Assembly: GCA_028710895.1 (NCBI GenBank)
Contig: JAQTTH010000016.1
Location: 1-64,000 of the forward strand
Reading direction: 5' to 3'
From: Paludibacter sp.
GTDB lineage: Bacteria > Bacteroidota > Bacteroidia > Bacteroidales > Paludibacteraceae
DNA: 64,000 nt
The translations under genes were made by a program, and so were the position numbers. This document shows, one piece after another, positions 4,320-35,304 of the stretch. The notes beneath the pieces are model-generated. The model saw only the letters and a list, made by a program, of their open reading frames with translations, was not told the origin of the DNA and did not search any database. Each line of letters begins with the position of its first letter. Position 1 is the first letter of the stretch.

Positions 4320-4385
4320 CTGTATTGATACGAAGGTTAACCGGTCTTTTCCATTTCTGAATAGTTTACAATATTTTGATTGCCT

Positions 4386-5759
4386 ATGAAATCACGTGAG
4401 AGCGAACTTGGAAATATCTTTATTATTATCGATGTTTTTTTACTCAATCTTTCTATCTTTTTTATTTCGTGGCTGCGTTTGGATGTATCGCTTTTCGACT
4501 ATCCCAAAATAGCATTGTATCTGCTGCATGCCAATCTCTCGTTGGTAGTAACCTATTATTTTTTCCACAAAAAGAGCATTTATACGAGCAACAGTATATT
4601 CAACTGGATTAAGAACCTGAGTATACGCATGGTCGATTTTTTGCTGATCTCCACTTTTATTGCATTTATATTTCAGGCCCGCGAGTTCTATTTCAGAACC
4701 ATGATACTCGAGTATTTTCTGACATTTTATTTTTTGCTGATTCTTGTTTATTCTTTTATATTTTATTTTTTTAAGTTTAAGTTTAAAGGTCTTGGCAATA
4801 CCAACCGGGTGCTTATTCTGGGCGAGAACCGAACGAGTGCTTCGCTTCGGAATATATTTGAAGCCAATCCGATACTTGGCTACGAATTTATCGAAAACAT
4901 AGGCGTAGACACAGAACGGGCAACAATTATTGAAACCGAATTAATTGTAGAAAAAATACGGGAGCTGAATATACAGGTTGTATTTGTTGTGGTTTCGATG
5001 TTTTATAACTACAAACGCTTGCGGGAGCTTATTCTCGTTTGCAACGAACTGGGGGTTCGCATATTTTTTGTACCCGAAAATTACAGATGGTTCAATAATA
5101 AGGCAAAATCGACAATGATAGGTGGGTTGACAATGATTAACCCGCAGCAAATTCCGTTGGACAGCATTGAATTGCGTGTGATTAAACGCTTATTTGATAT
5201 GGCGTTTTCATTTTTTATCATCCTGTTTATTATGTCGTGGCTTACTCCCCTGGTGGCATTGCTCATAAAACTGAGCTCAAAAGGGCCTGTGTTTTTTGTT
5301 CAGGAACGGACGGGTATCAACAATAAAACATTCAATTGCTACAAATTCCGAAGCATGGTTGTGAATCCGGATTCGGATAAGCTACAGGCAAGCAAAGACG
5401 ATAAACGCACAACCTGGATTGGTAGGTTTATCCGAAAAACAAATATTGACGAAATGCCACAGTTTTTCAATGTTTTTATGGGGGATATGTCGGTTGTTGG
5501 TCCCCGTCCGCACATGCTAAAGCATACCGAGAGTTATTCAAACCTGATAAAACATTATCTTGTTCGTCATTTTATTAAACCGGGTATTACCGGTTGGGCT
5601 CAGGTGAATGGCTACCGGGGCGAAACCGACGAGTTGTGGAAAATGGAGAAACGGGTAGAATTTGATTTAGACTATATCGAAAACTGGAATTTGTGGTGGG
5701 ATGTGAAAATTATATTTATGACGCTCTTTGGTAAGAATGCTCAGAAGAATGCCTTTTAA
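4386..5759 (+). CDS. Polyprenyl-phosphate hexose-1-phosphate transferase (WcaJ-type), copy 1
   Basis: 457 residues from the ATG at 4386 (an in-frame TTG lies two codons upstream). It would transfer a sugar-1-phosphate from a UDP-sugar to undecaprenyl phosphate on the cytoplasmic face, the first step of repeat-unit assembly. The N-terminal 130 residues hold about four membrane helices, about 140-250 is a nucleotide-binding-like fold, and the C-terminal catalytic part begins with a re-entrant helix near 275. Catalytic features are the basic KFRSM segment, the DE dyad in NIDEMPQFFNV, VVGPRPHM and KPGITGWAQVNGYRG. The C-terminus matches classical glucose-1-phosphate transferases. It has its own promoter and is separated from copy 2 by 424 bp. 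Confidence 0.88.
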   Translation: MKSRESELGNIFIIIDVFLLNLSIFFISWLRLDVSLFDYPKIALYLLHANLSLVVTYYFFHKKSIYTSNSIFNWIKNLSIRMVDFLLISTFIAFIFQAREFYFRTMILEYFLTFYFLLILVYSFIFYFFKFKFKGLGNTNRVLILGENRTSASLRNIFEANPILGYEFIENIGVDTERATIIETELIVEKIRELNIQVVFVVVSMFYNYKRLRELILVCNELGVRIFFVPENYRWFNNKAKSTMIGGLTMINPQQIPLDSIELRVIKRLFDMAFSFFIILFIMSWLTPLVALLIKLSSKGPVFFVQERTGINNKTFNCYKFRSMVVNPDSDKLQASKDDKRTTWIGRFIRKTNIDEMPQFFNVFMGDMSVVGPRPHMLKHTESYSNLIKHYLVRHFIKPGITGWAQVNGYRGETDELWKMEKRVEFDLDYIENWNLWWDVKIIFMTLFGKNAQKNAF

Positions 5760-6183: not shown

Positions 6184-7587
6184 ATGATTACAAAAAGAGA
6201 ATCGAGATTATCAAATGTGATGATAGTAGTGCAGGTGGCACTCACTTTAGTCTTATTCTTATTGACGGCTTATATTTTTCCCAATCATAAACACAGGCTT
6301 GATAATACCCTCATATTGATGCTTCAGATTGCTATTGTATGGGGATTTTTTTTATACAAACTGAATTTGGGTGTTATTTTCAGAACAGATAGTATAGCCA
6401 GTATGCTTAGGGGTTATTTAGCGACTGTGTTTTTCGGATCATTTTTCTTGTTTGTAGAGATATTGGTTATTTCTCATTTTCGTTCCATTCGCTATAATCT
6501 GGAATATGTTCAGGTATTTGCTATCATTGATTTGATCGGGTTGATTGGATTTAAAGTGATTTTCCATCAACTTATGCTAAACCTGCGCAACAATGGATTC
6601 AATTCGCGCAATGTTATAATTGTAGCCGACTCAGCCGCTATTCCATTTATAAATTCATTCATAAAGGCCAAAGACTGGGGATATCACATTGTTTCAATAG
6701 TAACACCCGATAAACAATTGAAAAGCGGTGTGAAAAGAACACGCTATATGCCAAATCAGGATATGCTCAAAAGCTATATCCACTGCAACCCCATTGATGA
6801 TGTATTCTATTGTCTACCTGTGAGCGATACACAATATAATCTGGAACAGCTTATTACTTCGATGGACGAAATCGGAGTTACACTCCACATTATGCAGCGC
6901 GCCGAAATAAAAACAAGAAGTCTGTTTTTTAAAAGTAGTAGTAGGTTGAAATACAATTTTGTAACCCATCAGACTGTGAGCGATAAATATTTGAGCCTGA
7001 AAGTAAAGGAGTTGTTTGATTTGTTCTTCAGTGTTCTGGTTTTGTTTTCGGCAGCTCCCTTGCTGGCACTCATTGCCATTCTGATTAAAGCAGAGGATGG
7101 TGGGTCAATATTCTTTAAACAGGAACGAATTGGGCAGAATGGTCGCAGGTTTAAGGTGTACAAGTTCCGAACCATGGTGATGAATGCAGAGGATTTGCTG
7201 GCTCAACTGGCTGAAAAAAATGAGGCTGACGGACCGGCATTTAAAATTGCAAATGACCCCCGTATAACAAAGATTGGACGTTTTTTGCGTAAAACTTCTC
7301 TGGACGAGTTGCCACAGTTCTATAATGTGCTCAAAGGAGAGATGTCGGTTGTGGGTCCGCGCCCACCACTGCTCAAAGAAGTGCAAAAATATGAACGGAC
7401 ACAACAACGACGACTAAGCATGAAACCCGGAATTACCTGCTGCTGGCAGGTGTGGGGCCGGCATCATGTTACATTCAATGAATGGATGCAAATGGATCTG
7501 GATTATATTGATAACTGGTCGATTATGCAGGATATAAAAATTGTATTTGCCACAGTACTTGTTGTATTTAAAGCTGATGGTCAATAA
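6184..7587 (+). CDS. Polyprenyl-phosphate hexose-1-phosphate transferase (WcaJ-type), copy 2
   Basis: 467 residues with the same architecture as copy 1: N-terminal membrane helices (about 12-125), central nucleotide-binding-like fold (about 140-250) and C-terminal phosphoglycosyl transferase domain (about 275-467). It retains KFRTM, the DE dyad in TSLDELPQFYNV and VVGPRPPLL. It differs where copy 1 has GWAQVNGYRG, reading CCWQVWGR, and it carries a longer insert after KFRTM. These differences suggest a different sugar donor. It forms its own transcription unit, with a promoter upstream and a perfect terminator downstream. Confidence 0.87.
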   Translation: MITKRESRLSNVMIVVQVALTLVLFLLTAYIFPNHKHRLDNTLILMLQIAIVWGFFLYKLNLGVIFRTDSIASMLRGYLATVFFGSFFLFVEILVISHFRSIRYNLEYVQVFAIIDLIGLIGFKVIFHQLMLNLRNNGFNSRNVIIVADSAAIPFINSFIKAKDWGYHIVSIVTPDKQLKSGVKRTRYMPNQDMLKSYIHCNPIDDVFYCLPVSDTQYNLEQLITSMDEIGVTLHIMQRAEIKTRSLFFKSSSRLKYNFVTHQTVSDKYLSLKVKELFDLFFSVLVLFSAAPLLALIAILIKAEDGGSIFFKQERIGQNGRRFKVYKFRTMVMNAEDLLAQLAEKNEADGPAFKIANDPRITKIGRFLRKTSLDELPQFYNVLKGEMSVVGPRPPLLKEVQKYERTQQRRLSMKPGITCCWQVWGRHHVTFNEWMQMDLDYIDNWSIMQDIKIVFATVLVVFKADGQ

Positions 7588-11513: not shown

Positions 11514-12530
11514 ATGTTAAATTACAAGTCGGTTTTGATTACTGGTGGTACAGGTTCCTTTGGTAAGAAGTTTATAGAGACAATTTTGAGAGATTATCCC
11601 GAGGTTAAACGAATTGTTATCTATTCAAGAGATGAATTAAAACAATTCGAATTAAAACAAAAATATCCTGAAAGTAAATATCCTCAGCTACGTTTTTTTA
11701 TAGGTGATGTTCGTGATGGAGATCGTTTGAAGAGGGCTTGCGAGGGTATAGATGTAATTATTCATGCAGCAGCTATAAAGCAAGTAGATACTGCAGAATA
11801 CAATCCAGATGAATGTATTAAAACAAATGTGCATGGTGCACAAAATGTGATTGATGCTGCTTTAGCCACTGGAGTTAAACATGTTGTTGCTCTTTCCACA
11901 GATAAAGCTTGCGCTCCAATTAATTTATATGGTGCGACAAAATTATGTTCGGACAAATTATTCGTAGCAGCAAATAATATTAAGGGATCAAAAAATATAA
12001 AATTTTCAGCAGTACGATATGGAAATGTAATGGGTTCTCGTGGCTCTGTTATACCATTTTTTATTAGTAGAAGAGAATCAGGAGTACTCCCGATTACACA
12101 TAGGGAAATGACTCGATTCAATATATCTCTTCAGGCTGGTGTCGATCTAGTAATGTTTGCTATAAAGAATCATTTAGGTGGAGAGATATTTATACCAAAG
12201 ATACCTTCGTATAAAATTATAGATGTTGCTAAAGCAATTGCTCCAAGCGCAAAATTAGAAGATGTAGGTATCAGACCTGGCGAAAAATTGCATGAAGAAA
12301 TGATCACTTCAACTGACGCATTGAATACCATAGATTTAGGAAGATATTACGCTATACTTCCGTCAGTTTCATTCTCTCACACAAATGAAGACTATATTAA
12401 ACATCATAAAGCTGTTCCTGTTCCTTTTGGTTTTCACTATAGTTCAGACATAAATGCAGAATGGGAAACAGTGGAATCTTTGCGTGAAAAGATTGTTGAA
12501 TACTGTGATCCAAATTTCGAAGTAAAATGA
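11514..12530 (+). CDS. pseB: UDP-GlcNAc 4,6-dehydratase (inverting), PseB-type
   Basis: 338 residues, short-chain dehydrogenase fold. It converts UDP-GlcNAc to a UDP-4-keto-6-deoxy-L-sugar, the first step to pseudaminic acid. N-terminal nucleotide motif TGGTGSFGKKF, then YSRDELKQFE, FFIGDVRDGDRL, HAAAIKQVDTAEYNP, the catalytic STDKACAPINLYGATK, and RYGNVMGSRGSV. These match the soluble PseB group rather than membrane-bound PglF/LegB enzymes. FnlA/CapE-type enzymes share some motifs, but the next three genes support the nonulosonate pathway. The stop overlaps the next start by 4 bp. Confidence 0.88.
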   Translation: MLNYKSVLITGGTGSFGKKFIETILRDYPEVKRIVIYSRDELKQFELKQKYPESKYPQLRFFIGDVRDGDRLKRACEGIDVIIHAAAIKQVDTAEYNPDECIKTNVHGAQNVIDAALATGVKHVVALSTDKACAPINLYGATKLCSDKLFVAANNIKGSKNIKFSAVRYGNVMGSRGSVIPFFISRRESGVLPITHREMTRFNISLQAGVDLVMFAIKNHLGGEIFIPKIPSYKIIDVAKAIAPSAKLEDVGIRPGEKLHEEMITSTDALNTIDLGRYYAILPSVSFSHTNEDYIKHHKAVPVPFGFHYSSDINAEWETVESLREKIVEYCDPNFEVK

Positions 12531-13258
12531 ATATTGTTGCAATTATTCAAGCACGATTAGGTTCAACCCGTTTGCCAAAGAAAGTCTTCGCAGATTTAGC
12601 GGGGAAGCCTCTTATTTGGCATGTAATAAATCGTTTGAAATACTCGGATAGGATAAATAATATTGTGTTGGCTACCACCAATAGTTGTGTAGATGATGAA
12701 CTTGCCTATTGGGCTACTAAAGAACAAGTTAATCTTTTCCGAGGAAGCGAAAACAACGTTCTTGAAAGGTTTTATTTAGCAGCAAAACATTACTCTGCTG
12801 ATATAATTGTTCGTATAACAGCAGATGATCCATTTAAAGACCCAGCAATTATTGATAAAGTAATTGATAAACTTTTAGATGAAAATTTGGATTTTGCATA
12901 TAATAATAATCCTCCAACATTTCCTGAAGGATTGGATACAGAGGTGTTTACATATAATGCAATTGAGAAGGCCTATTTTCATTCAAAAGATGATTACGAA
13001 AAGGAGCATGTAACTCAATACTTCTACAGAAATAGTGAGTTATTTAAACAATCAAATTTTGAAAATGTAAATAACATATCAAATTTGCGTTGGACAATTG
13101 ATACTGAACTTGATTATGAAATGACAAAACAAGTTTATAATGTTCTTTATAAGAATGACTGTATTTTTCAAACGAATGATATTTTACGACTGCTTGATGA
13201 GAGACCCGAAATTTCTCGATTAAATATTAATGTTGCGAGAAGTGCAATGTACAAATAA
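12527..13258 (+). CDS. SpsF-type cytidylyltransferase (CMP-nonulosonate synthetase-like)
   Basis: 243 residues. Expected to activate a nonulosonic acid with CTP. The N-terminus IIQARLGSTRLPKKVF is the nucleotide-binding signature of SpsF/KdsB-like transferases; RITADDPFKDP carries the acidic metal-binding residues, and LRWTIDTELDYE is typical of the SpsF branch. It starts inside the end of pseB (ATGA overlap), which supports coupled translation. It is not a NeuA/PseF of the usual CMP-sialic acid synthetase type, so the assignment to the nonulosonate rests on context. Confidence 0.78.
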   Translation: MNIVAIIQARLGSTRLPKKVFADLAGKPLIWHVINRLKYSDRINNIVLATTNSCVDDELAYWATKEQVNLFRGSENNVLERFYLAAKHYSADIIVRITADDPFKDPAIIDKVIDKLLDENLDFAYNNNPPTFPEGLDTEVFTYNAIEKAYFHSKDDYEKEHVTQYFYRNSELFKQSNFENVNNISNLRWTIDTELDYEMTKQVYNVLYKNDCIFQTNDILRLLDERPEISRLNINVARSAMYK

Positions 13259-13265
13259 TAAGAAT

Positions 13266-14438
13266 ATGAAACGATTTACAGAATTAGAAAGAAAATATGT
13301 TTTGGATGTATTAGACAACGAGTTTAGTACTTCAAAGAATAGTATCTATAACAATAAGCTAGAAAAGTTGTTTGCGGAAAAATTCTCCGCGAATTATGCT
13401 ATAGGTCATTCTAATGGTACGGTAACAATGCACACAGCATTGGCTGCGCTTGGTGTTCAAGCTGGTGATGAGGTGATTGTGCCACCACTTACGATGAGTA
13501 GTACTAGTTTGGCTGTTTTGAATAATGGTTCAATTCCGGTTTATGCTGATGTCAATAAAGATACATTTAATATTGACGCAGCAGCTATTGAACGTGTAAT
13601 TACATCGAAAACAAAAGCTGTTATAACCGTAGCTCTTTATGGACTGTCACCTGATTATGATGAGATATTAAAGGTTTGCAAAAAATACAACATATATCTA
13701 ATTGAAGATAATGCTGAATGTTTTTATAGTACTTATAAAGGAAAACTTGTTGGACAGTTTGGTGATTTTGCAAGCTTTAGCTTTCAAGCTAGTAAGCATT
13801 TAACATGTGGTGAAGGTGGTATGTTAACGTGTACTAACGAAGAATTTGCAGATAATGCCCGCCGTTTTAATTGTTTGGGATACGCGGGTGTTAGCGCTAA
13901 GCAAGGTAAAATCACTCGAAACGATATTCAAGATCCCAATTATAGTCGCCACGTAGCTTTAGGCTTTAATTATCGTATGTCTGAACTTCAGGCAGCTGTT
14001 GCGTTTGGTCAATTGGAAAGAGCTGAAGAATTAATCCAAAATCGTATTGAAGTTGCCAAAATATTCGATAGTGTTATTATTGATACAAGTTTGTTGACTA
14101 GACAACTTGAACCGGATGGATATTTGAATTCTTACTGGTCTTATAGCTTGATTCTTAATACTGATAAACCCGAGATTGATTGGTACAAATTCAGAGATTT
14201 ATTTCAAAAAAATGGGGGTGACGGTTTCTATGCAGCTTGGAAATTATCCTATTTTGAACCTTTATTTTTAGAGTTGATTCAAAAATGGCCTGGTGTGTGG
14301 CAAAAGTATGAAAAAGGTTTATGTCCTGTATCCGAATATCTACAGCCACGTATGATTCAACTGAAAACGAATTATTGGGAACTAGGAGAAGCAGAGAGAC
14401 AAGCAGAAATTTTGTCAAAAACTATAAATCAATTCTAA
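13266..14438 (+). CDS. DegT/DnrJ/EryC1 aminotransferase (PseC-like role)
   Basis: 390 residues from the ATG at 13266; an in-frame ATG at 13230 lies inside the preceding gene and gives an unlikely N-terminus. PLP-dependent sugar aminotransferase: HSNGTVTMHTALAALGV, DEVIVPPLTM, the EDNAECF aspartate region and the Schiff-base lysine in FSFQASKHLTCGEGG. It would aminate a 4-keto sugar; placed between pseB and a NeuB-type synthase it most likely does the PseC step. Substrate is inferred only from context. Confidence 0.82.
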   Translation: MKRFTELERKYVLDVLDNEFSTSKNSIYNNKLEKLFAEKFSANYAIGHSNGTVTMHTALAALGVQAGDEVIVPPLTMSSTSLAVLNNGSIPVYADVNKDTFNIDAAAIERVITSKTKAVITVALYGLSPDYDEILKVCKKYNIYLIEDNAECFYSTYKGKLVGQFGDFASFSFQASKHLTCGEGGMLTCTNEEFADNARRFNCLGYAGVSAKQGKITRNDIQDPNYSRHVALGFNYRMSELQAAVAFGQLERAEELIQNRIEVAKIFDSVIIDTSLLTRQLEPDGYLNSYWSYSLILNTDKPEIDWYKFRDLFQKNGGDGFYAAWKLSYFEPLFLELIQKWPGVWQKYEKGLCPVSEYLQPRMIQLKTNYWELGEAERQAEILSKTINQF

Positions 14439-14439
14439 T

Positions 14440-15501
14440 ATGAAATCATTTTTAAAAGAAATTAAAATAGGTAATCGTTCCATTGGTAATGGTCACCCAA
14501 CATATATAATAGCCGAAATAGGAGCTAACTTTGACAAAGATATAAACAAAGCCAAAAGGTTAATCGATGCAGCTAAGGAGTGCGGAGCTGATTGTGCAAA
14601 GTTCCAAACATTCTCAACACAAAAAATTGTATCCGAAGGAGGTTTTTCAAGAATGAAGCTGGAAGGTGTACATGGTTCATGGGGGCGTACGGTGAGCGAA
14701 GTGTTTAAAGATGCTGAATTTCCAAGAGAATGGCATAAAGAGATTTCAGATTATTGTAAAAAAGTAGGAATCGATTTTTCTACATCTCCTTATGATTTCG
14801 AAGCGGTTGATTTATGTATGGAATTGGATATTCCATTTATAAAAATGGGTTCCGGTGATATCACGTGGTTAGAAATGCTAGCATATATTGCTAAAACAGG
14901 TAAACCTTTAATGCTTGCTACCGGTGATGCGACAATGGCTGAAATCGATGAAGCTGTTCGTACAATAGAAGCAACCGGAAATAATCAATTAGTATTAATG
15001 CAATGTATAACGAATTATCCTTCAAAGATTGATAGTGCTAATGTAAATGTATTAAAGACATATCAATCAGCATTTGATATATTAACCGGTTATTCAGATC
15101 ATGCTCCTGGGCCTGTTGTTGCTTTGGCTTCTGTAGTTCTTGGTGGATGTGTTATCGAGAAGCATTTTACCTTGAATAAAGCCGATAAAGGACCTGATCA
15201 TCCCCACTCAATGAATCCTACTGAATTCAAACTTATGGTAGATTACGTTCGTGAAGTAGAGCGTGCAATGGGTAGTACACGTAAAGAAGTAGTAGCAGAA
15301 GAGGGTGAAACTGTTTTTGTTCAACGTCGTTGTTTATACACAAAAAATAGCTTAAAAAAAGGTCAAGTGATAACAGAGTCAGATATCGATGTGTTAAGAC
15401 CAGCTTTGGGTATAGCTCCAAAGTTTAAGAGCATTATTATTGGTAAAACCTGCAAGATAGATATTGAAGCAGGACAACCGCTTTTTTGGGATAACTTCTA
15501 A
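14440..15501 (+). CDS. NeuB/PseI-family nonulosonic acid synthase
   Basis: 353 residues. It condenses phosphoenolpyruvate with a 6-carbon amino sugar to form a nine-carbon acid. The TIM-barrel domain (about 20-280) has YIIAEIGANFDKD, DCAKFQTFS, FIKMGSGDITW, MQCITNYPS, GYSDHAPGP and EKHFTLNK. The C-terminal SAF/antifreeze-like domain (about 295-353) has RRCLYTKNSLKKGQVIT. Sequence alone does not separate Pse, Leg or Neu synthases; the neighbouring PseB-type dehydratase favours pseudaminic acid or an isomer. Confidence 0.88.
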   Translation: MKSFLKEIKIGNRSIGNGHPTYIIAEIGANFDKDINKAKRLIDAAKECGADCAKFQTFSTQKIVSEGGFSRMKLEGVHGSWGRTVSEVFKDAEFPREWHKEISDYCKKVGIDFSTSPYDFEAVDLCMELDIPFIKMGSGDITWLEMLAYIAKTGKPLMLATGDATMAEIDEAVRTIEATGNNQLVLMQCITNYPSKIDSANVNVLKTYQSAFDILTGYSDHAPGPVVALASVVLGGCVIEKHFTLNKADKGPDHPHSMNPTEFKLMVDYVREVERAMGSTRKEVVAEEGETVFVQRRCLYTKNSLKKGQVITESDIDVLRPALGIAPKFKSIIIGKTCKIDIEAGQPLFWDNF

Positions 15502-16718: not shown

Positions 16719-17990
16719 ATGGATTATTTTTATTTATTGGAATATCTGAAGCAAAATACAGATATAGACAAATCAAAAATTGATTTGTTGAAATATCAAT
16801 TAGATCAAAGAATCTATTTTTTTGGACAACATTTTAAATATCCAAGGGAGAATGCAAATCGATTCAAGCTATTTCTACGTAATATTTTACAAGATGTAAA
16901 TGCATATAGCCTGTATTTAACTAAATGTATTTCTTCGGATAGTAAAAAACGAATAATATCAAATGCTTATTTCTCAACAAACTTCGAACTTGAAAAACTA
17001 AATTATAATGTTATTAGCCCAATACATGTTAAAAACAAGGCAAATTCATTGGTTGGGGATTTTAGTATATATAATAAGTTTAAGACAGTAAGGGATGTTG
17101 TTGATAAATGCAATTTTTATGATTTGAAGAGTGATGATTCGTTAAAAAAAATAGATGCCTTATTTTTAGAATTATATAATTGGTATAAAAAATCAAATAT
17201 TTCATCATTAATTGTGCCAAATGATATAGCTTTTTTTGAATTACTGAATATCAGAATTTTTAAACAACTTCAAAGACCTAGTTTTGTGTTTCTTCATGGT
17301 TTACCTTGTAGATATAATCCTTTAGATGAAAATGAAACCGATTATTTAATTGTTTGGGGAGATAAGATAAAGGAAAACTATGTTAATGCTGGGTTTTGCT
17401 CTGAAAAGATATATATATCTGGTCATCCATATTACAACAAGAAGATTGAGTTTAAATTACGAAATAGTTTGGATAATATATTAATTCTTACAAAATCAAT
17501 TGAGGGAGCGCAACATCGTGATAAGGTTCGTTTGGGAGATAGAGGTAACATAATATTATATCTTTATTCGATACAGAATGTTTTGAAAAGAAAGGGAGTT
17601 AAAAAAGTAAAACTTCGTCCTCATCCTTCAGAAAATGTAAATTGGTATTTAGAATTTTTAGATACAGATTTTTTTGAATTGGATAAACTTAATTTATCAG
17701 ATTCTTTAAAACAATCTACTTTAGTAATTGGACCTGCGTCAACTGTTTTTTTAGAGAGTCTATATTTTGGAGTTAATTACGTTGTTTATGAACCAACTAT
17801 AAATCATGTTGATTTAGTTGGCTTTATACCTGCACCTCCATTTGATGGTAATAACTCAAAAGTACCTGTAGCGAAAGACGAAAATGATTTGTTTGTTTTA
17901 ATTAATGATAAATTGTCTGTAGATTCTAGCATCTTTAATGATTACATTCAAACTCCGTTTGATATGGGTTTTATTAAAAAGTTAATTTAA
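16719..17990 (+). CDS. Putative GT-B glycosyltransferase (nonulosonate transferase candidate)
   Basis: 423 residues, no membrane segment. The C-terminal half looks like the nucleotide-binding lobe of a GT-B enzyme: [15 protein letters not shown] followed by [16 protein letters not shown] and NYVVYEP, a layout seen in capsule and polysialyl-type transferases (HP motif and S-S/E). The N-terminal half is poorly conserved. Next to the nonulosonate genes, it is the best candidate for using the CMP-activated acid, but PseG-like hydrolases also have a GT-B fold and cannot be ruled out by eye. Confidence 0.5.
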
Positions 17991-17998
17991 TTTTTTTT

Positions 17999-18625
17999 GT
18001 GTGGATAAGATTTATATATAAAAAATATAAATTACGATTGGAATCTTACAAACAACATATAACTGTAATTGTGATTATAAATATATTATTATGGCTTATT
18101 AAGGTATTTCCATCTTCATTGGGAGGTGTACAAATCCGTAAATTATTCTATTCAAGGTATTGGAAACATAAAAACTTTACAGTTCCTGAAAATGTTGATT
18201 TTGGCAATCTGAATAATATATCTGTTGGTCATTTTTTTAGGGTATGTCCTTGTGTTAAAATGTTTTCAGAAGAAAATGGTAAAATAATAATTGGATCTAA
18301 TTTCTTTGCAAATTATAATTGTTTTATTTATTCAAAAGAAAATGATATATATATTGGTGATAATTGTCTATTAGGTCCAGATGTTACAATAATTAATTCT
18401 AATCACTGTATAAATAAGAATCAATTAATTAGAGAACAAAGGGATATAAATCTACCAATTGTTATCGGTAACGATGTTTGGATAGGAGCCAAAGCTATTA
18501 TTTTGGCCGGAGTAACAATTGGTGATGGGGCCGTAATAGCTGCAGGAGCAGTTGTAACAAAGGATGTTGCAGCTTATACAGTTGTGGGTGGAGTTCCTGC
18601 AAAAAAAATTAAAGAGCGCGTATAA
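17999..18625 (+). CDS. Hexapeptide-repeat (LbH) acyltransferase
   Basis: 208 residues from a GTG start. Left-handed beta-helix acyltransferase of the WbbJ/maa type: hexapeptide turns run from about 80 to 195, with [15 protein letters not shown] carrying the catalytic-type histidine, then [20 protein letters not shown] and [20 protein letters not shown]. It likely acetylates a sugar of the repeat unit, or fills the N-acetyltransferase role missing from the nonulosonate block. A short hydrophobic N-terminal segment (about 20-35) may tether it to the membrane. The stop abuts the flippase start. Confidence 0.85.
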
Positions 18626-28765: not shown

Positions 28766-29584
28766 ATGAAAATTACAGCCTCTATTGTAACTTATAAAAA
28801 TAAAATTGAAATTCTGAAACAAACTATTGATAGTTTTCTAAATACATCTTTAGATGTGAAATTATATATTGTTGATAATTCAAATCAAGAATCAATAAAA
28901 GAGCTATGTTCACAACTTAGTAGTGAAATAGAATACATTCCGATGAATAAAAATGTTGGATTTGGTGCCGCACATAATATAATTTTAAATGACATATCAA
29001 AACTTGGAATTTATCATCTTGTGCTAAATCCAGATATTCGATTTGAGCCTGGTGTATTAGAAGCATTGTTTAATTATATGGAGGACAATAAAAATGTTGG
29101 CAACATATTACCAAAGGTGCTATACCCAGATGGTTCCATTCAATATTTGTGTAAATTATTACCAAGTCCCTTAAATTGGGTTGGAAGGCTAATTATCCCA
29201 TTTAAATCAATTAAAGATAAAATGAATTATAATTTTGAAATGCGTTTTTCAGGTTATGATAAAATAATGGAAGTGCCATATTTATCCGGTTGTTTTATGT
29301 TTTTGCGTAAAGAGGCAATTGAAAAAGTTGGAATTTTTGACGAGGGAATATTTATGTATGGTGAAGAAACTGATTTAAATAGGCGAATTGGTAAATTCTA
29401 CAAAACAGTATTTTACCCGGAAGTTGAAATAGTACATGATTTTGCCAAAGGATCACATAAAGAATTGAGGCTTTTGATAATACATATAAAGGCTGCGATT
29501 TACTATTTTAATAAATGGGGGTGGTTTTTTGATAAAGAAAGGCGAACAGTTAACAGTAGAATATTAGCTAATCATAAATTATGA
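28766..29584 (+). CDS. Family 2 glycosyltransferase, rhamnosyltransferase-like
   Basis: 272 residues. ASIVTYKNKIEILKQTIDS, LYIVDNSNQ, NVGFGAAHNI, LVLNPDIRFEPGVLEAL, YLSGCFMFLRKEAIEKVG and MYGEETDLNRRIG are the ordered motifs of WbbL-like GT2 enzymes. The NPDI motif takes the metal-binding role. The donor is probably one of the deoxyhexoses made in the locus. Confidence 0.87.
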   Translation: MKITASIVTYKNKIEILKQTIDSFLNTSLDVKLYIVDNSNQESIKELCSQLSSEIEYIPMNKNVGFGAAHNIILNDISKLGIYHLVLNPDIRFEPGVLEALFNYMEDNKNVGNILPKVLYPDGSIQYLCKLLPSPLNWVGRLIIPFKSIKDKMNYNFEMRFSGYDKIMEVPYLSGCFMFLRKEAIEKVGIFDEGIFMYGEETDLNRRIGKFYKTVFYPEVEIVHDFAKGSHKELRLLIIHIKAAIYYFNKWGWFFDKERRTVNSRILANHKL

Positions 29585-30486
29585 AAACTCTATTATTCAC
29601 CGGTGCTTCCGGTTTTCTCGGTATAAATACTATTCCTATTCTTGAAAAATCTTTTTCAATAAAAACTCTTGGTCTGACACACGAAGATGATTATTGTATA
29701 AACATGGCCCATGAGGTTCCGAATTTGGATATGCATTTTGATATTGTACTTCATGCTGCAGGCAAAGCACATACTGTTCCAAGAACAGATATTGAGAAGC
29801 AATCCTTTTTTGATGTAAATCTAAATGGTACAATTAATCTTTGTTCAGCTCTTGAAAGATCAGGCATTCCAAAATCATTCATATTTATTAGTTCTGTAGC
29901 AGTCTATGGACTTGAAAGTGGTGAGAATATTACGGAAGAATATCCATTAAACGGTAAATCCCCTTATGCTCTTAGCAAAATTATGGCAGAACAGTTTCTT
30001 ACAAACTGGTGTCGTGAGCATAAAGTGATTTTGAGTATTATCAGACCATCACTTATAGCTGGTCCTAACCCACCAGGTAATTTAGGATCAATGATAAAAG
30101 GGATTAGTTCAGGTAGGTATTTTAGTATTGCCGGAGGTGAAGCTCAAAAGAGTGTATTGATGGTTGAGGATATTGCTAATCTGGTTCCATTACTTGCGCA
30201 AAAAGGAGGTATCTATAATGTTTGTGACTCGGAACAGCCTAAATTTAGTGATCTGGAGAAAACTATTGCTTTTCAGTTAAATAAATCGTTGCCAGTTACA
30301 ATTCCATTATTTTTTGCGAAAACCATTGCTTTGATTGGTGATATAATTGGAACTAAATCTCCCATAAACTCAGAAAAACTGGACAAAATTACTAAATCAT
30401 TGACTTTTTCAAACGCTAAAGCAATTTTTGAATTAGGGTGGAATCCATTAAATGTATTGGTCAATTTTAGAATCTTTGAAAAATAA
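29581..30486 (+). CDS. NAD-dependent epimerase/dehydratase paired with a WecA-type transferase
   Basis: 301 residues, 4-bp overlap with the GT2 gene before it. FTGASGFLGINTI nucleotide motif, DIVLHAAGKAHTVPR, FIFISSVAVYGLESG, SPYALSKIMAEQFL (Tyr-x3-Lys present), SIIRPSLIAGPNPPGN. HAAGKAH and the GPxxPGN strand are typical of the SDRs that precede WbpL/WecA-type genes and reduce or epimerise UDP-4-keto-HexNAc derivatives. With the next gene it could supply and attach an N-acetylated deoxyhexosamine. Confidence 0.82.
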   Translation: MKTLLFTGASGFLGINTIPILEKSFSIKTLGLTHEDDYCINMAHEVPNLDMHFDIVLHAAGKAHTVPRTDIEKQSFFDVNLNGTINLCSALERSGIPKSFIFISSVAVYGLESGENITEEYPLNGKSPYALSKIMAEQFLTNWCREHKVILSIIRPSLIAGPNPPGNLGSMIKGISSGRYFSIAGGEAQKSVLMVEDIANLVPLLAQKGGIYNVCDSEQPKFSDLEKTIAFQLNKSLPVTIPLFFAKTIALIGDIIGTKSPINSEKLDKITKSLTFSNAKAIFELGWNPLNVLVNFRIFEK

Positions 30487-30509
30487 TTTCATATTTAGAC
30501 CTTAAAACC

Positions 30510-31454
30510 ATGCTTTATTTTTTTATTCTTCTTTTTCTTTTTATAATAGAATTAGCATATTTTAAATTTGCCGACCACTTCAATATAATTGATAAACCCA
30601 ATCAACGCAGTTCTCACACTTCCATTACCTTGAGGGGAGGAGGGATAATAGTTTATTTTGGGATTTTATTCTATTTTTTGATTGAGGGGTTACATTATCC
30701 CTGGTTTTTCTTCGGACTAACACTCATTTCAATCATTAGTTTTGCAGATGATATTAAACCACAATCATCTAAAATTCGCCTGATAATTCATTTTATATCA
30801 TTGGCATTAATGTTTTACCAATGGAACTTATTTGAGCTTCCATGGTATTACACTATTATTGCTCTGATCTTTTGCACGGGTGTTCTGAACGCTTATAACT
30901 TCATGGATGGTATAAATGGAATTACAGGGGGATACAGCTTTGTTGTTGCTAGCGCATTGTGCTATATAAACCTATACCAGGTGAGTTTTGTTGATGCAAA
31001 TTTCATTTATTTTTTACTAATTGCCTTGCTTGTATTCAATTTCTTTAATTTCAGGAAAAAAGCTAAATGTTTTGCTGGTGATGTAGGGGCTGTTTCGATA
31101 GCATTTATTATAGTATACCTTCTTGGTTTGCTAATAATTAAGACTAATGATTTCGGATACATTATTTTACTAGCATTGTATGGAGTTGATGCTATATTGA
31201 CAATTATACATAGACTCATCTTGAAAGAAAATATTTTTGAACCTCACAGAAAACATTTGTATCAAATATTGGCAAATGAATTAAAATTACCACATTTGTT
31301 AGTTTCAACAATATATATGATTTTTCAAGTGGTTGTTATAATTGGACTGCTGTATACGCCATATAAATTAATATACTCTGTTGCTGTTATATTAATTATG
31401 ATAATTGTGTATATATTGTTTATGAGAAAGTATTTTCATTTGCATAGAGTATAA
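30510..31454 (+). CDS. WecA/WbpL-type polyprenyl-phosphate HexNAc-1-P transferase
   Basis: 314 residues, about ten membrane helices, MraY/WecA superfamily. IIDKPNQRSSHTSITLRGGG is the conserved cytoplasmic loop, ISFADDIKP and YNFMDGINGITGG hold the catalytic aspartates, and FAGDVGAVSIAF plus HRLILKENIFEPHRKHLYQ (the HIHH-like region) complete the set. It adds a HexNAc-1-phosphate to undecaprenyl phosphate. It is the third candidate initiating enzyme of the locus. Confidence 0.9.
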   Translation: MLYFFILLFLFIIELAYFKFADHFNIIDKPNQRSSHTSITLRGGGIIVYFGILFYFLIEGLHYPWFFFGLTLISIISFADDIKPQSSKIRLIIHFISLALMFYQWNLFELPWYYTIIALIFCTGVLNAYNFMDGINGITGGYSFVVASALCYINLYQVSFVDANFIYFLLIALLVFNFFNFRKKAKCFAGDVGAVSIAFIIVYLLGLLIIKTNDFGYIILLALYGVDAILTIIHRLILKENIFEPHRKHLYQILANELKLPHLLVSTIYMIFQVVVIIGLLYTPYKLIYSVAVILIMIIVYILFMRKYFHLHRV

Positions 31455-31721
31455 AAAAAAGATAGTTTTATTTCATTATTGTATTGTTTCCTTTTCTTTT
31501 TTATTATTTTTGCTAAGTCTATATATGACAAATTTCTGAGTGACTATAATCATTTGCATATACTTTTTTTAGTTTACTCAATCTCAATTGAATAAATTTC
31601 GTATATTATATATCTTTTTAGATATTCGATTTCGTTATATCGTAATATAGGTTTCGGTATCTATATTAAAACAATAAGTGTTCTACATACAGTTATCCTA
31701 AATGTTAAGGATAAGTAAGAA
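31455..31721 (+). other. Intergenic break inside the locus
   Basis: AT-rich, no ORF. A second TAnnTTTG word (TATTTTTG, 31505-31512) lies here, far from the next gene. I see no clear hairpin terminator. Confidence 0.45.
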
Positions 31722-31729
31722 TAACTTTG
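31722..31729 (+). promoter_or_regulatory. -7 box TAACTTTG
   Basis: Exact TAnnTTTG match 62 bp upstream of the ATG at 31792, in a 337-bp gap. A convincing -33 box is missing. It may start a separate transcript for the last five genes. Confidence 0.45.
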
Positions 31730-31791
31730 ATAATCACAAAACACACTTTTTTATCTACATACTAGCATTTAATGCAAAATGAAATCACAAC

Positions 31792-33009
31792 ATGAGAGTT
31801 GATTTTTCACCACCCTATATCGACCAATCTGTAGTAGATCAGGTCGTTGATACGTTGAAATCAGGTTGGATAACGACCGGAAATAAAGTAAAGTTATTAG
31901 AGTCAGAGATTAAATCATATACTGGTTCTCAATCAGTATTATGTGTAAACTCCTGGACTTCAGGAGCTATTATGATGCTAAGATGGTTGGGTTTGAAGCC
32001 TGGCGATGAAGTCATTATTCCAGCATATACATATGCTGCAACAGCTTTAGCTGTAATGCATGCGGGTGGAATTCCTGTGATGGTCGATATTTGTGATGAT
32101 TTTAATATTTCATTAACTGAAATTCGTAATGCAATAACACCAAAAACAAAAGCTATTATCCCGGTTGATGTCGCAGGACTGCCTTGTGATTATAAGGAAA
32201 TAATGCAGCTGGTTAACGAGTCAGAGGTAAAGGCTAAGTTTATACCAACCTCTAAAATACAAGAACAACTGAATAGAATACTTGTACTTATTGATGCAGC
32301 TCATTCATTTGGGGGTAAATACAATGATAAAAATATAGGTGTTGATGCAGACCTTACAATTTTTTCACTTCATGCGGTTAAGAATTTGACCACTGCAGAA
32401 GGCGGTGCGATATGTATAAATATGCCACTACCATTTGATAATAGCAATTTATATGAGGAACTTAGGTCGATGTCGATGAATTGTCAATCAAAGGATGCCT
32501 ATGCTAAATCTATTGCAGGATGCTGGAAATATGATATTGTTGGTTTTGGTATGAAAATTAATATGCCTGATGTAAATGCAGCGATAGGATTGGCACAATT
32601 ACGTAAGTTTATGAAATTGTTGTCTAAAAGAAAAAAAATTTCAAATCACTATCAAGAATCATTCTCCAAATATAAATGGGCAATTCTTCCAACTCAGTAC
32701 GATGCTGTAAAGGAATCTGCATATCATGTTTTTCCATTACGAATCAAAGATATAACTGAGGTACAACGTGATGAAATAATTAGTGAGATATCTAAACTGG
32801 ACATAGCTACAAATGTGCATTACATTCCTTTACCAATGTTTAGCTTTTTCAAAGAGAGTGGATATGACATCTCTAATTATCCAAATTCATATAAAAATTT
32901 TGCATGTGAAATATCACTACCGATTTATCCTCAATTGACCGAAGAAGAAGTTGATTTTGTAATAAAGAGTGTAAAAGAATCATATGAAAAAGTAGTTTTG
33001 AACCGATGA
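31792..33009 (+). CDS. DegT-family sugar aminotransferase (WcfR-like)
   Basis: 405 residues. It opens with VDFSPPYIDQSVVDQVVDTL and SGWITTGNKVKLLE, then SWTSGAIMMLRWLGLKPGD, VIIPAYTYAATALAV, LIDAAHSFGG and the PLP lysine in FSLHAVKNLTTAEGG. This resembles B. fragilis WcfR, which aminates UDP-4-keto-6-deoxy-GlcNAc for the first sugar of polysaccharide A. Its partner, a small phosphoglycosyl transferase, follows with a 4-bp overlap, as wcfS follows wcfR. It is clearly a different branch from the 13266 aminotransferase. Confidence 0.82.
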   Translation: MRVDFSPPYIDQSVVDQVVDTLKSGWITTGNKVKLLESEIKSYTGSQSVLCVNSWTSGAIMMLRWLGLKPGDEVIIPAYTYAATALAVMHAGGIPVMVDICDDFNISLTEIRNAITPKTKAIIPVDVAGLPCDYKEIMQLVNESEVKAKFIPTSKIQEQLNRILVLIDAAHSFGGKYNDKNIGVDADLTIFSLHAVKNLTTAEGGAICINMPLPFDNSNLYEELRSMSMNCQSKDAYAKSIAGCWKYDIVGFGMKINMPDVNAAIGLAQLRKFMKLLSKRKKISNHYQESFSKYKWAILPTQYDAVKESAYHVFPLRIKDITEVQRDEIISEISKLDIATNVHYIPLPMFSFFKESGYDISNYPNSYKNFACEISLPIYPQLTEEEVDFVIKSVKESYEKVVLNR

Positions 33010-33593
33010 TTCGATTTTGTGATATATTATTTTCATTTTTGGGAATCATTATTTTATTTCCGGTTTTTCTCTTGATTTATCTACTCATAATTATTGAATC
33101 CAGAGGAAGTGGATTGTATTTACAAAATAGAGTAGGTAAGAACGGAGTTGATTTTGTTTTGTACAAATTTCGTACTATGCGTATTGAATCAGACAAAAAA
33201 GGATTAATTACAATTGGAGATAAAGATCCAAGATTAACGAAAGCTGGTTTTATATTAAGGCGACTGAAATTAGATGAACTACCACAACTTTACAACGTCC
33301 TAAAGGGAGATATGAGTCTGGTTGGACCCAGACCCGAAGTTAGAAAATATGTGGATATGTATAGTTCAGAACAGCAAAAGGTTTTACAAGTACGTCCTGG
33401 TATAACTGATTATGCTTCCATTCAGTATATGAATGAAAATGAGATTCTTGGTAAGGCTTCTGACCCGGAAAGAGTATATATCGAGGAGATTATGCCTCAC
33501 AAAATCAGTTTAAACATGAGGTATATACAGAATATAAGTTTGAAAGAGTATTTTCATGTTATTTTCCTTACACTCAAAGCTATAATAAATTGA
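33006..33593 (+). CDS. Small monotopic phosphoglycosyl transferase (WcfS/PglC-like)
   Basis: 195 residues, catalytic domain only. A single N-terminal re-entrant helix (about 6-28) precedes LYLQNRVGKNGVDFVLYKFRTMR, the DE dyad in LKLDELPQLYNVLKGDMS, LVGPRPEVRKYV and RPGITDYASIQY. It lacks the N-terminal helices and nucleotide-binding fold of the two WcaJ-type proteins. With the preceding aminotransferase it should place an amino-deoxy sugar phosphate on undecaprenyl phosphate. It is the fourth initiating-type enzyme in the locus. Confidence 0.88.
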   Translation: MIRFCDILFSFLGIIILFPVFLLIYLLIIIESRGSGLYLQNRVGKNGVDFVLYKFRTMRIESDKKGLITIGDKDPRLTKAGFILRRLKLDELPQLYNVLKGDMSLVGPRPEVRKYVDMYSSEQQKVLQVRPGITDYASIQYMNENEILGKASDPERVYIEEIMPHKISLNMRYIQNISLKEYFHVIFLTLKAIIN

Positions 33594-33665
33594 GTGGTAT
33601 TTGATTCGTTCAAAGGACTAAACTCCATCAGAATTAATTCCCGAAAAAAGTATTGTCATTGGTTT

Positions 33666-34799
33666 ATGAAAAAGAAAGTTTTTGTTAGTGGTTGTTACGA
33701 TATGCTACATAGTGGACATGTCGCTTTTTTTGAAGAGGCAGCCCGATATGGCGATTTATATGTTGGTATCGGGTCTGATAGAACCATTAATAAACTTAAA
33801 GCACGTAAAACGATAAATTCAGATGCCGAGCGGCTATACATGGTGAAGGCATTGAAGGTGGTAAAAGATGCCTGGATAAATCAGGGAGGTGGTTTGCTTG
33901 ACTTTTTGGAAGAGTTGAATGTGTTACAACCCGATATATTTTTTGTAAATGCCGATGGACATACTCCCGATAAAGAGGCATTATGCAAGGAAATGGGAAT
34001 CGAATACGTTGTTAGTAAACGTGTTCCTCATGGAAATTTACCAGCCCGTTCAACTACAGCTTTGCGTCAGGAGTGTAAAATACCTTATCGTATTGATTTA
34101 GCAGGTGGGTGGATTGACCAACCTTACGTGAGTAAATATGCAAGTGGTTCTGTGTTGACTATTTGCATTGAACCGGATTATGAGTTTAATGATCGAAGTG
34201 GCATGTCGACCAGTAGCCGCAAAAAGGCTATCGAATTGTGGCAAACCGATATTCCTGATGGTGATAAAGAAAAGCTGGCTAAAACATTGTTTTGCTTCGA
34301 AAATCCTCCGGGAACTAAATATGTAAGTGGATCACAGGATTCACTGGGTATTACTACTCCCGGACTCAATAATTTCTATTACGATGGTGGTTATTGGCCT
34401 TCAGAAATTAAAAGCGTAACAGATTCAGATATTTTAACCTGGATTGAAGAGCGGATTTGGATGATTCCACTTTATCCACGCTTAGATAATTATGACGTTT
34501 TAGCAAATACTAATATTAATGAGTATAGTGCTGAGCGCCTGAGCGCTGCAGCTAGTAAATGTTGGGATGCATTGCTGGCAAAAGATGCTCAACTGGTTGG
34601 TGAAGCTATATCAGAGAGTTTTGAAGCTCAAATAGCCATGTTTCCAAATATGGTTACTCCAGAAATTTTGAGTCAAATAGAAGGCTTTAAATCGAATGTG
34701 CTGGGTTGGAAGATGAGTGGGGCAGGAGGTGGAGGATACCTGATTTTCTTTAGCGAAAATCCCATTGAAAATGCAATTCAGATTCGTATCAGAAGATAA
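33666..34799 (+). CDS. Nucleotidyltransferase (RfaE2-like) fused to GHMP kinase-like domain
   Basis: 377 residues from the ATG at 33666; an in-frame GTG at 33594 would add 24 residues with no domain content. Residues 1-135 are a cytidylyltransferase-like HxGH domain: KVFVSGCYDMLHSGHVAFFE, YGDLYVGIGSDRT, KARKTINSDAERLYMVKALK. Residues about 138-377 look like a GHMP kinase: RIDLAGGWIDQPYVSKY (motif 1) and KMSGAGGGGYLIFF (motif 3). The phosphate-loop motif 2 is weak, perhaps SGSQDSLGITTPG. The pairing suggests phosphorylation and nucleotide activation of one sugar, like FKP or HldE, but the sugar is unknown. Confidence 0.72.
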   Translation: MKKKVFVSGCYDMLHSGHVAFFEEAARYGDLYVGIGSDRTINKLKARKTINSDAERLYMVKALKVVKDAWINQGGGLLDFLEELNVLQPDIFFVNADGHTPDKEALCKEMGIEYVVSKRVPHGNLPARSTTALRQECKIPYRIDLAGGWIDQPYVSKYASGSVLTICIEPDYEFNDRSGMSTSSRKKAIELWQTDIPDGDKEKLAKTLFCFENPPGTKYVSGSQDSLGITTPGLNNFYYDGGYWPSEIKSVTDSDILTWIEERIWMIPLYPRLDNYDVLANTNINEYSAERLSAAASKCWDALLAKDAQLVGEAISESFEAQIAMFPNMVTPEILSQIEGFKSNVLGWKMSGAGGGGYLIFFSENPIENAIQIRIRR

Positions 34800-34824
34800 A
34801 TATTGAAACTATTAAACCCTAAAT

Positions 34825-35241
34825 ATGAAGATTGTTAATACTGATTTGTTGAATGAGGTAACCGGGAAGGCTCAAAGAAGTTCCAGATTACGAATGAACT
34901 TCAATTTTCATGAGTCGTTGGATGCAAAAGCTCAACGGCTGCTAAATGCTATGGAACCAGGGACTATTATGCCCGCCCATAGACATTTGAATACTCGTGA
35001 AACCTATGTATTGTTGCGTGGAAGCCTTAAAGTGATGTTTTATAATGATAATTGTGAATTGACTGATACTGTATTATTAGACCCTAAAACAGGTGATTTT
35101 GGTATTGATATTCCTGAAGGACAATGGCATTCGATCGAAGTGTTGGAATCAGGAACAGTAATTTTTGAAGTGAAGGACGGTCCTTATAGTCCACTTACAA
35201 ATGATGATATTTTGTGTTTAAAAGCTGACAATAAAGAATGA
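34825..35241 (+). CDS. WbuC-like cupin
   Basis: 138 residues. Cupin fold: MEPGTIMPAHRHLNTRETYVLLRG carries the metal ligands (two His and a Glu), and IPEGQWHSIEVLESGTVIFEV holds the distal His. It matches the WbuC family found at the ends of O-antigen and capsule loci, whose function is not established. It is the last gene of the locus, 26 bp after the fusion gene and just before the bidirectional terminator. Confidence 0.82.
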   Translation: MKIVNTDLLNEVTGKAQRSSRLRMNFNFHESLDAKAQRLLNAMEPGTIMPAHRHLNTRETYVLLRGSLKVMFYNDNCELTDTVLLDPKTGDFGIDIPEGQWHSIEVLESGTVIFEVKDGPYSPLTNDDILCLKADNKE

Positions 35242-35257
35242 AATTCACGAATAATTA

Positions 35258-35292
35258 AAACGCCTTCTTTAAAACTTAAAGAAGGCGTTTTT
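35258..35292. terminator. Bidirectional terminator between convergent genes
   Basis: A 15-bp stem, AAACGCCTTCTTTAA with TTAAAGAAGGCGTTT, three-base loop. A-rich on the left and T-rich on the right, so it serves both the polysaccharide locus (+) and the SPFH gene (-). Confidence 0.93.
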
Positions 35293-35304
35293 GCAGTATT
35301 AGAA

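What the first reader, a model, noticed from the sequence alone, without database searches (positions are those of the whole stretch)
31792..33593. WcfR/WcfS-like pair at the end of the locus suggests a zwitterionic polysaccharide
Seen: a DegT aminotransferase overlaps a 195-residue phosphoglycosyl transferase by 4 bp, near the end of a Wzx/Wzy locus. Known: in the B. fragilis polysaccharide A locus, WcfR and WcfS make and attach a 4-amino-trideoxygalactose as the first sugar. The same locus here also encodes a nonulosonic acid, which is negatively charged. Inference: the polymer carries both free amino and carboxylate groups and could act like an immunomodulatory zwitterionic polysaccharide.
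Basis: partly seen in the sequence, partly recalled or inferred. Interest (0 to 1): 0.5.

Follow-up and report, generated by a model that had tools for sequence, protein, structure and literature searches.

The report
WcfR/WcfS amino-sugar starter gene pair
Two overlapping genes closely resemble the pair that makes a positively charged amino sugar and starts a capsule with it in the gut bacterium Bacteroides fragilis; such pairs are common in related bacteria, and whether this polymer really carries both charges or affects immunity is unproven.

Summary
A 405-residue DegT aminotransferase (31792-33009) overlaps a 195-residue phosphoglycosyl transferase (33006-33593) by ATGA. Against the B. fragilis NCTC 9343 PSA operon they are 64% identical to WcfR and 68% to WcfS, nearly end to end. 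The DegT has both Spr1654-type insertions and its cofactor and substrate residues and shares a supported clade with WcfR. A PglF-like dehydratase lies elsewhere in the genome, as in B. fragilis. Synthesis and lipid-linking of AATGal is therefore well supported, and ordinary: a WcfS-like gene accompanies the DegT in 24 of the 29 best class loci and 64 of 80 named loci. 'Zwitterionic' is only plausible: a NeuB-type synthase is present, but PseG was not found, and the locus holds three further phosphoglycosyl transferases. A related locus (G221) keeps much of the polymer-building block with a different PGT/aminotransferase. Immunomodulation is unsupported. Side finding: some WcfR-like genes have a GNAT acetyltransferase beside them that could mask the amine; none was found here.

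The parts
31792..33009 (+). WcfR-like DegT aminotransferase (405 aa), predicted UDP-AATGal synthase
33006..33593 (+). WcfS-like small monotopic phosphoglycosyl transferase (195 aa), predicted AATGal-1-P:undecaprenyl-phosphate transferase
33006..33009 (+). ATGA start/stop overlap of the two genes
31455..31791 (.). 337-bp gap before the pair without an ORF of 90 aa or more; no promoter evidence
33594..34799 (+). cytidylyltransferase-like plus GHMP-kinase C-terminal gene, also directly after the pair in L178 and L075 (75-76% identity); likely start is a later ATG than the listed GTG (inference)
34825..35241 (+). WbuC family cupin protein
30510..31454 (+). GT4/WecA-type phosphoglycosyl transferase, rival starter enzyme
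29581..30486 (+). NAD-dependent SDR epimerase/dehydratase-like protein next to the WecA-type gene
4380..5759 (+). long Bac_transf phosphoglycosyl transferase (459 aa), rival starter enzyme
6184..7587 (+). long Bac_transf phosphoglycosyl transferase (467 aa, CoA_binding_3), rival starter enzyme
11514..12530 (+). PseB, inverting UDP-GlcNAc 4,6-dehydratase
   Evidence: 526.4 bits, cut-off 407.75
12527..13258 (+). CTP_transf_3 cytidylyltransferase, possible CMP-nonulosonate synthetase
13230..14438 (+). second DegT aminotransferase (LegC/PseC-like, below cut-offs)
14440..15501 (+). NeuB/PseI-family nonulosonic acid synthase (below both cut-offs)
16719..17990 (+). orf423, GT-B-fold candidate, possible nonulosonate transferase (weak)

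Best explanation
The two genes are a WcfR/WcfS pair. The DegT protein is predicted to move an amino group from L-glutamate (PLP-dependent) onto C4 of UDP-2-acetamido-2,6-dideoxy-xylo-hexos-4-ulose, giving UDP-AATGal (= UDP-FucNAc4N) with a free 4-amino group. The 4-keto substrate is predicted to come from the PglF-like UDP-GlcNAc 4,6-dehydratase encoded elsewhere in the genome, as in B. fragilis. The small monotopic phosphoglycosyl transferase is predicted to transfer AATGal-1-phosphate to undecaprenyl phosphate, starting a lipid-linked repeat unit that is flipped and polymerised by the Wzx/Wzy-type machinery of this locus. Shown here: similarity to WcfR and WcfS, active-site and insertion residues, clade, neighbourhood, presence of the dehydratase gene. 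Inferred: substrate, stereochemistry at C4, free amine in the finished polymer, and that this pair (not the other three phosphoglycosyl transferases) starts the polymer that would carry the nonulosonic acid. A zwitterionic polymer follows only if those inferences hold.
For: DegT vs WcfR 256/403 identical, PGT vs WcfS 132/194 identical. The reference operon was identified by the contig length 5205140, given for B. fragilis NCTC 9343 in a table of PMC2798158 (passage), and by its gene order. Best PDB match of the DegT is Spr1654 (6EWJ, E 1.4e-101), against 1e-50 for ArnB and 1e-32 for 2fn6, H. pylori PseC. Residues equivalent to Spr1654 Tyr84, Asp170, His196, Lys199, Glu205, Gln234, Lys257, Asn342 and Tyr345 are Y81, D168, H194, K197, E203, Q232, K255, N341 and Y344, and both Spr1654-specific insertions are filled (148-162, 210-215) (the numbering was carried over by me from the alignment). 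In a 104-row tree (quick method, no bootstrap) window DegT and WcfR share a 39-row clade with SH-aLRT 96 and a 44-row clade with 99. The stretch before the LDELPQL motif, which I take for the substrate-specific mobile loop of PMC12550135 (passages), is alike in window PGT and WcfS and different in the five other PGTs aligned. A PglF-like 645-aa dehydratase is in the genome, 49-50% identical to two 634-aa B. fragilis homologues. In 8 of 45 same-strand downstream genes a PglF-like dehydratase is the next gene. PglF+WcfR+WcfS made bactoprenyl-linked AATGal in E. coli (PMC13063421, passages).
Against: No enzyme assay. NCBIfam's best model for the DegT is PseC (272.6 bits), though below its cut-off of 423.5, and the locus also encodes PseB, whose product differs at C5 (recalled). 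Spr1654's action on the keto sugar was itself said to remain to be determined (PMC5936713, passage). Three other phosphoglycosyl transferases in the locus could start the same polymer. G221 keeps much of the block and a WecA-type gene but is not among the genomes listed with a DegT match at E 1e-60 (where mostly four candidates per genome were scored), and has another PGT (41%) and another DegT (25%). In 14 of 80 named loci the DegT has no WcfS-like gene within 650 bases downstream (two of these loci end too soon to tell), so the pairing is not universal.
Confidence: 0.82

Rival explanations
1. The pair is WcfR/WcfS but serves a different glycan from the one with the nonulosonic acid: the locus polymer is started by the WecA-type or a long phosphoglycosyl transferase, and AATGal goes into a second polymer or a glycoprotein, so no single polymer is zwitterionic.
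For: Two long Bac_transf genes, a GT4/WecA-type gene and the small PGT coexist. The pair is set off by a 337-bp gap. G221 keeps the block and a WecA-type gene (47%) without a WcfR/WcfS pair. In same-genus G416 a WecA-type gene (67%) also stands upstream of the DegT with a gap of about 500 bases.
Against: The pair sits in the same gene run and strand as the block; in 7 of 9 same-genus or same-family loci a WcfS-like gene (60-72%) directly follows the DegT in varied polysaccharide loci, as in PSA. G221 also has a small PGT, so a starter swap is equally possible.
Confidence: 0.35
2. The polymer contains AATGal but is not zwitterionic because the 4-amine is acetylated, or because no acidic sugar enters the repeat.
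For: A GNAT gene stands directly beside the DegT in some loci, partial 4-N-acetylation of FucNAc4N is reported for a Fusobacterium O-antigen (PMC8517482, passage), a hexapeptide acetyltransferase of unknown target is in the locus (17999-18625), and PseG was not found.
Against: The DegT-linked GNAT was not found in the own genome; the hexapeptide protein has no PglD-type domain; NeuB-family synthase, cytidylyltransferase and a possible transferase are present.
Confidence: 0.35
3. The DegT is a PseC-type enzyme acting on the PseB product of the same locus, and the PGT is unrelated to it in substrate.
For: PseC is the top NCBIfam model (272.6 bits) and PseB is encoded in the locus.
Against: PseC cut-off of 423.5 not met; 64% to WcfR, Spr1654 far ahead of PseC in the PDB search, both Spr1654-specific insertions present; the locus has its own other DegT beside PseB and NeuB.
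Confidence: 0.06

Closest known systems
WcfR/WcfS of the B. fragilis NCTC 9343 polysaccharide A operon (L155)
   Same: Adjacent DegT and small PGT near the end of a Wzx/Wzy-type locus, 64% and 68% identity, dehydratase encoded elsewhere.
   Different: Here the genes overlap by 4 bp and are followed by two more same-strand genes; the locus has Wza/Wzc, three other PGTs and NeuB-type genes; I saw no pyruvyltransferase family among the window proteins scanned (not every window gene was scanned).
Spr1654 of Streptococcus pneumoniae teichoic acid synthesis (PDB 6EWJ)
   Same: Both specific insertions and the named active-site residues.
   Different: More distant than WcfR (343 bits over 400 residues); teichoic acid rather than a Wzx/Wzy-type capsule (PMC5936713, passages).
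PglC/PglD/PglE bacillosamine enzymes (general)
   Same: Same superfamilies: small PGT (8e37 is the best PDB match of the PGT, E 8.7e-26) and DegT.
   Different: No PglD-type gene adjoins the pair; the PGT is much closer to WcfS (68%); a loop of the PGT follows WcfS.
   Same: PseB, cytidylyltransferase, NeuB, orf423, hexapeptide protein, Wzx, GT1, CDP-sugar genes and a WecA-type gene (34-82% identity).
   Different: Another PGT (41%) and another DegT (25%), with a PglF-like gene read as two ORFs close by.

Membership tests
WcfR (AATGal synthase) | High similarity to B. fragilis WcfR over the full length | tested here: met
   64% over 403 residues, one gap
WcfR (AATGal synthase) | Spr1654-type insertions and PLP/substrate residues | tested here: met
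   alignment, residues printed, list from PMC5936713 passages
WcfR (AATGal synthase) | Groups with WcfR in a tree | tested here: met
   39-row clade SH-aLRT 96, 44-row clade 99 (quick method)
WcfR (AATGal synthase) | Aminates the PglF product to UDP-AATGal with galacto configuration | not testable with these tools
   needs enzyme assay and NMR
WcfS (AATGal-1-P transferase) | Full-length similarity to WcfS | tested here: met
   68% over 194 residues, no gap
WcfS (AATGal-1-P transferase) | Gene next to a WcfR gene | tested here: met
   4-bp overlap
WcfS (AATGal-1-P transferase) | Uses UDP-AATGal as donor | not testable with these tools
   needs assay
Zwitterionic polysaccharide locus of the PSA type | Source of a free amine without a linked N-acetyltransferase | tested here: inconclusive
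   WcfR/WcfS present and the DegT-linked GNAT not found in the genome, but other acetyltransferases were not searched genome-wide
Zwitterionic polysaccharide locus of the PSA type | Source of a negative charge in the same repeat unit | tested here: inconclusive
   NeuB-family synthase below both cut-offs; PseG not found; transferase only suspected
Zwitterionic polysaccharide locus of the PSA type | Alternating charges and immunomodulation shown on purified polymer | not testable with these tools
   needs polymer chemistry and cell assays
PseC | NCBIfam TIGR03588 over its cut-off | tested here: not met
   272.6 bits against 423.5

The most novel reading that the evidence does not exclude
The locus is an evolutionary module swap that turned an acidic polymer into a zwitterionic one: a WcfR/WcfS starter pair (free-amine AATGal) has replaced or joined the starter enzymes of a nonulosonic-acid plus CDP-deoxysugar polymer block that in G221 carries a different PGT/aminotransferase, so that the finished repeat unit pairs AATGal's amine with a nonulosonate carboxylate instead of the pyruvate of PSA. 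In other loci a GNAT gene beside the DegT would switch the positive charge off by N-acetylation.
Probability: 0.25. Interest if true: 0.5.

Novelty: new member of a known kind. Interest (0 to 1): 0.3.

Why it matters
WcfR homologues have been used as genomic markers of putative immunomodulatory zwitterionic polysaccharides (the screen is described in PMC10167101, passages). This case shows what such a marker does and does not say: it predicts an AATGal starter well, but the charge of the finished polymer depends on other genes. The GNAT acetyltransferase found beside the DegT in some loci is a concrete, testable reason why a WcfR-bearing locus might not give a free amine; partial 4-N-acetylation of FucNAc4N is documented in the Fusobacterium nucleatum ATCC 51191 O-antigen (PMC8517482, passage). 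The different starter modules of two otherwise related loci (window and G221) are a natural experiment on how the first sugar is chosen.

Tried and rejected
Considered and rejected as best reading: a PseC-type aminotransferase (top NCBIfam model, but below its cut-off, and far behind Spr1654 and WcfR); a PglC/PglD/PglE bacillosamine set (no PglD-type gene at the pair, PGT and DegT closest to WcfS and WcfR).

Led nowhere or stayed weak: the sigma-70-type promoter scan of 31300-35500 found no more sites than shuffles (17 against a mean of 20.2). The Bacteroidetes-type promoter pattern (consensus recalled) gave 4 matches in the window against 2.67 expected, none in the 337-bp gap. PseG (TIGR03590) gave only 13.2 bits at E 0.11 in the own genome, cut-off 153.55; the same search rang in 10 of 14 control genomes, over the cut-off in 2. 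For orf423 (16719-17990), which I suspected to be the nonulosonic-acid transferase, Pfam gave nothing and phmmer against the PDB nothing better than E 0.4; an AlphaFold2 model of low confidence (mean pLDDT 64, 3 sequences) matched GT-B folds, best UDP-GlcNAc 2-epimerases including NeuC; I saw no entry named sialyltransferase among the 50 rows shown by each search. Only its place between a NeuB-type gene and the flippase in G047 and G221 speaks for that role. Paper searches: (acetyltransferase, zwitterionic capsular, aminotransferase, Bacteroides together) found 0 papers; (zwitterionic and nonulosonic terms) found 93 papers, of which I saw the 12 listed and passages of three; none of what I saw describes a GNAT linked to WcfR or an AATGal-plus-nonulosonate polymer, which is a limit of these searches. 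Neff et al. 2016 (PMC5113727) is not held and was not read. The Shigella sonnei WbgX/WbgY genes (recalled) would be another comparator; I did not fetch them because they lie on a virulence plasmid. An earlier count said 26 of 29; the correct count is 24 of 29 (corrected).

Full report
What is there. Upstream lie Wza- and Wzc-like genes (7941-11491; names are my reading, supported by 65-67% identity to the genes that open the same-genus locus L174), a PseB-type dehydratase (11514-12530, 526.4 bits over a cut-off of 407.75), a cytidylyltransferase (12527-13258, Pfam CTP_transf_3), another DegT (13230-14438), a NeuB-family synthase (14440-15501; 311.6 bits to NeuB_NnaB and 301.6 to PseI, both below cut-off), CDP-sugar genes and glycosyltransferases (my reading), an SDR protein and a GT4/WecA-type transferase (29581-31454). 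A cytidylyltransferase-like/GHMP-kinase gene and a WbuC cupin gene follow the pair, then a convergent Band_7 gene.

Direct comparison with WcfR and WcfS. A search of 119 genomes of the genus of G510 (the genome of a Bacteroides propionicigenes locus) found DegT matches at E up to 1e-90 in 22. One of them, G592, has a contig of 5205140 bases, the length given for B. fragilis NCTC 9343 in a table of PMC2798158 (passage). Its matching locus (L155) has the order expected of the PSA operon: two short genes in the place of upaY/upaZ, a flippase-like gene, a UDP-galactopyranose mutase-like gene, glycosyltransferase-like, polymerase-like and pyruvyltransferase-like genes, then WcfR and WcfS (my reading of the translations, gene names from PMC13063421 and PMC10167101 passages). 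The window DegT is 64% identical to WcfR over 403 residues with one gap; the PGT is 68% identical to WcfS over 194 residues without a gap.

Function of the DegT. Among solved structures its best match is Spr1654 of Streptococcus pneumoniae, the proposed AATGal aminotransferase; its paper (passages) shows aminotransferase activity but says the reaction on the keto sugar remained to be determined. It names two insertions, residues 150-164 and 212-217, that set Spr1654 apart from other sugar aminotransferases; both are filled here, and the residues named for PLP, glutamate and sugar binding are kept (alignment, letters printed, numbering carried over by me). For WcfR itself, passages of PMC13063421 report that PglF, WcfR and WcfS together gave bactoprenyl-linked AATGal in E. 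coli. Against: the best NCBIfam model is PseC, below its cut-off.

Substrate supply. The own genome has one PglF-like dehydratase of 645 residues outside the window (396.8 bits; apart from PseB, at 330, the other 11 matches score 55.6 bits or less), about 49% identical to each of two 634-residue B. fragilis homologues. In B. fragilis the dehydratase gene is also outside the PSA operon (PMC13063421). In other genomes it is directly linked: in 8 of 45 same-strand genes that follow the pair the next gene is PglF-like.

Distribution. DegT matches at E up to 1e-60 occur in 194 of 395 genomes of the class, own included, and in 25 of 119 relatives: 9 of the same genus (own included), 5 of the family, 11 of the order. 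Two more named loci (L125, L133) have it about 570-590 bases away with no ORF of 100 aa between. Of the other 14 named loci, L124 and L138 end too soon to tell; in the rest other genes follow, so the DegT also occurs without this partner. The tree of 104 DegT rows (quick method, SH-aLRT only) puts window, same-genus copies, Bacteroides, Prevotella, Capnocytophaga and one Pasteurellaceae copy (Rodentibacter) in one 39-row clade with WcfR at 96. The pair is thus a widely shared but patchily distributed module near the end of variable loci.

Is the polymer zwitterionic? For: AATGal would bring a free amine; no PglD-type gene adjoins the pair; the DegT-linked GNAT was not found in the own genome or in B. 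fragilis nor in the window; a NeuB-family synthase and a cytidylyltransferase are present, and orf423 keeps its place between a NeuB-type gene and the flippase in G047 and G221, which suggests a transferase. Against or open: PseG was not found in the genome, so the route to a nonulosonic acid is incomplete as read; the orf423 model is poor and gives only a GT-B fold; a hexapeptide acyltransferase of unknown target is in the locus (17999-18625); other acetyltransferases were not searched genome-wide; and three further PGTs could be the starter.

A telling relative. In G221 a locus shares with the window PseB (66%), a cytidylyltransferase (38%), NeuB (34%), orf423 (42%), the hexapeptide protein (63%), Wzx (59%), GT1 (43%), an SDR (44%), RfbF (82%), RfbG (80%), a cupin (73%), another SDR (65%), two GT2 genes (59% and 41%) and a WecA-type gene (47%). 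Where the window has WcfR/WcfS it has a 191-aa PGT (41% to the window PGT), then 1960 bases without an ORF of 100 aa, a DegT of another type (25%) and a PglF-like gene read as two ORFs. G221 also has genes that the window block lacks, among them an SDR/nucleotidyltransferase group before its WecA-type gene. So the starter module differs while much of the building block is kept; which enzyme starts the polymer in either locus cannot be told from sequence.

A caveat for genome screens. A GNAT acetyltransferase of about 200 residues (Pfam Acetyltransf_1 for the L179 copy) stands directly upstream of the DegT in 5 of 80 named loci (L075, L076, L094, L100, L114; E 1e-25 or better), in 1 of 12 loci of the Bacteroides genus (L165; in L157 it is about 1.1 kb away), and in 2 of 9 same-genus or same-family loci (L179, and L176 with an internal stop). 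A more distant GNAT (26%) is upstream in L133, and weak or partial matches lie elsewhere in L106, L109, L125, L131, L135, L156, L159 and L161. Pfam counted Acetyltransf_1 in 5 of 67 upstream genes. That such a GNAT N-acetylates the 4-amine is my inference; partial 4-N-acetylation (60%) of FucNAc4N is reported for a Fusobacterium O-antigen (PMC8517482, passage).

Verdict. The pair is a new member of a known kind. The zwitterionic polymer is a fair hypothesis (I put it near 0.4); immunomodulation is untested.

Noticed in passing
L075:3980-4573, L076:1556-2161, L094:9399-9998, L100:5112-5714, L114:9396-10001, L165, L176, L179:10962-11564: A GNAT acetyltransferase of about 200 aa directly upstream of the WcfR-like DegT in some loci; could N-acetylate the 4-amine of AATGal and so remove the positive charge. 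The L176 copy has an internal stop.
   Followed up: partly
L083, L109, L113, L116, L127, L131, L135, L142: A PglF-like UDP-GlcNAc 4,6-dehydratase is the next gene after the DegT-PGT pair, giving a compact three-gene set.
   Followed up: partly
window 33594-34799; L178:9361-10497; L075:6451-7584: A cytidylyltransferase-like/GHMP-kinase gene, 75-76% identical, directly follows the pair in three loci; function unknown.
   Followed up: no
window 11514-15501: PseB, cytidylyltransferase, DegT and NeuB genes stand together but PseG was not found in the genome, so the nonulosonic acid and its route are unclear.
   Followed up: partly
window 4380-5759 and 6184-7587: Two long polyprenyl phosphoglycosyl transferases close together before the Wza-like gene, besides a WecA-type and a WcfS-like enzyme: four candidate starters in one locus.
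   Followed up: no
window 40140-44510 (-): One 1456-aa ORF holds both the small (CarA) and the large (CarB) chain domains of carbamoyl-phosphate synthase.
   Followed up: no
L083 (Rodentibacter caecimuris): A Pasteurellaceae genome carries a WcfR-like DegT (62%) and WcfS-like PGT (60%) inside the Bacteroidota clade of the tree, suggesting horizontal transfer.
   Followed up: no
L191:13962-15921 (G221): About 2 kb between the PGT and the DegT without an ORF of 100 aa and with visibly repeated translated stretches, perhaps decayed or repeat DNA.
   Followed up: no
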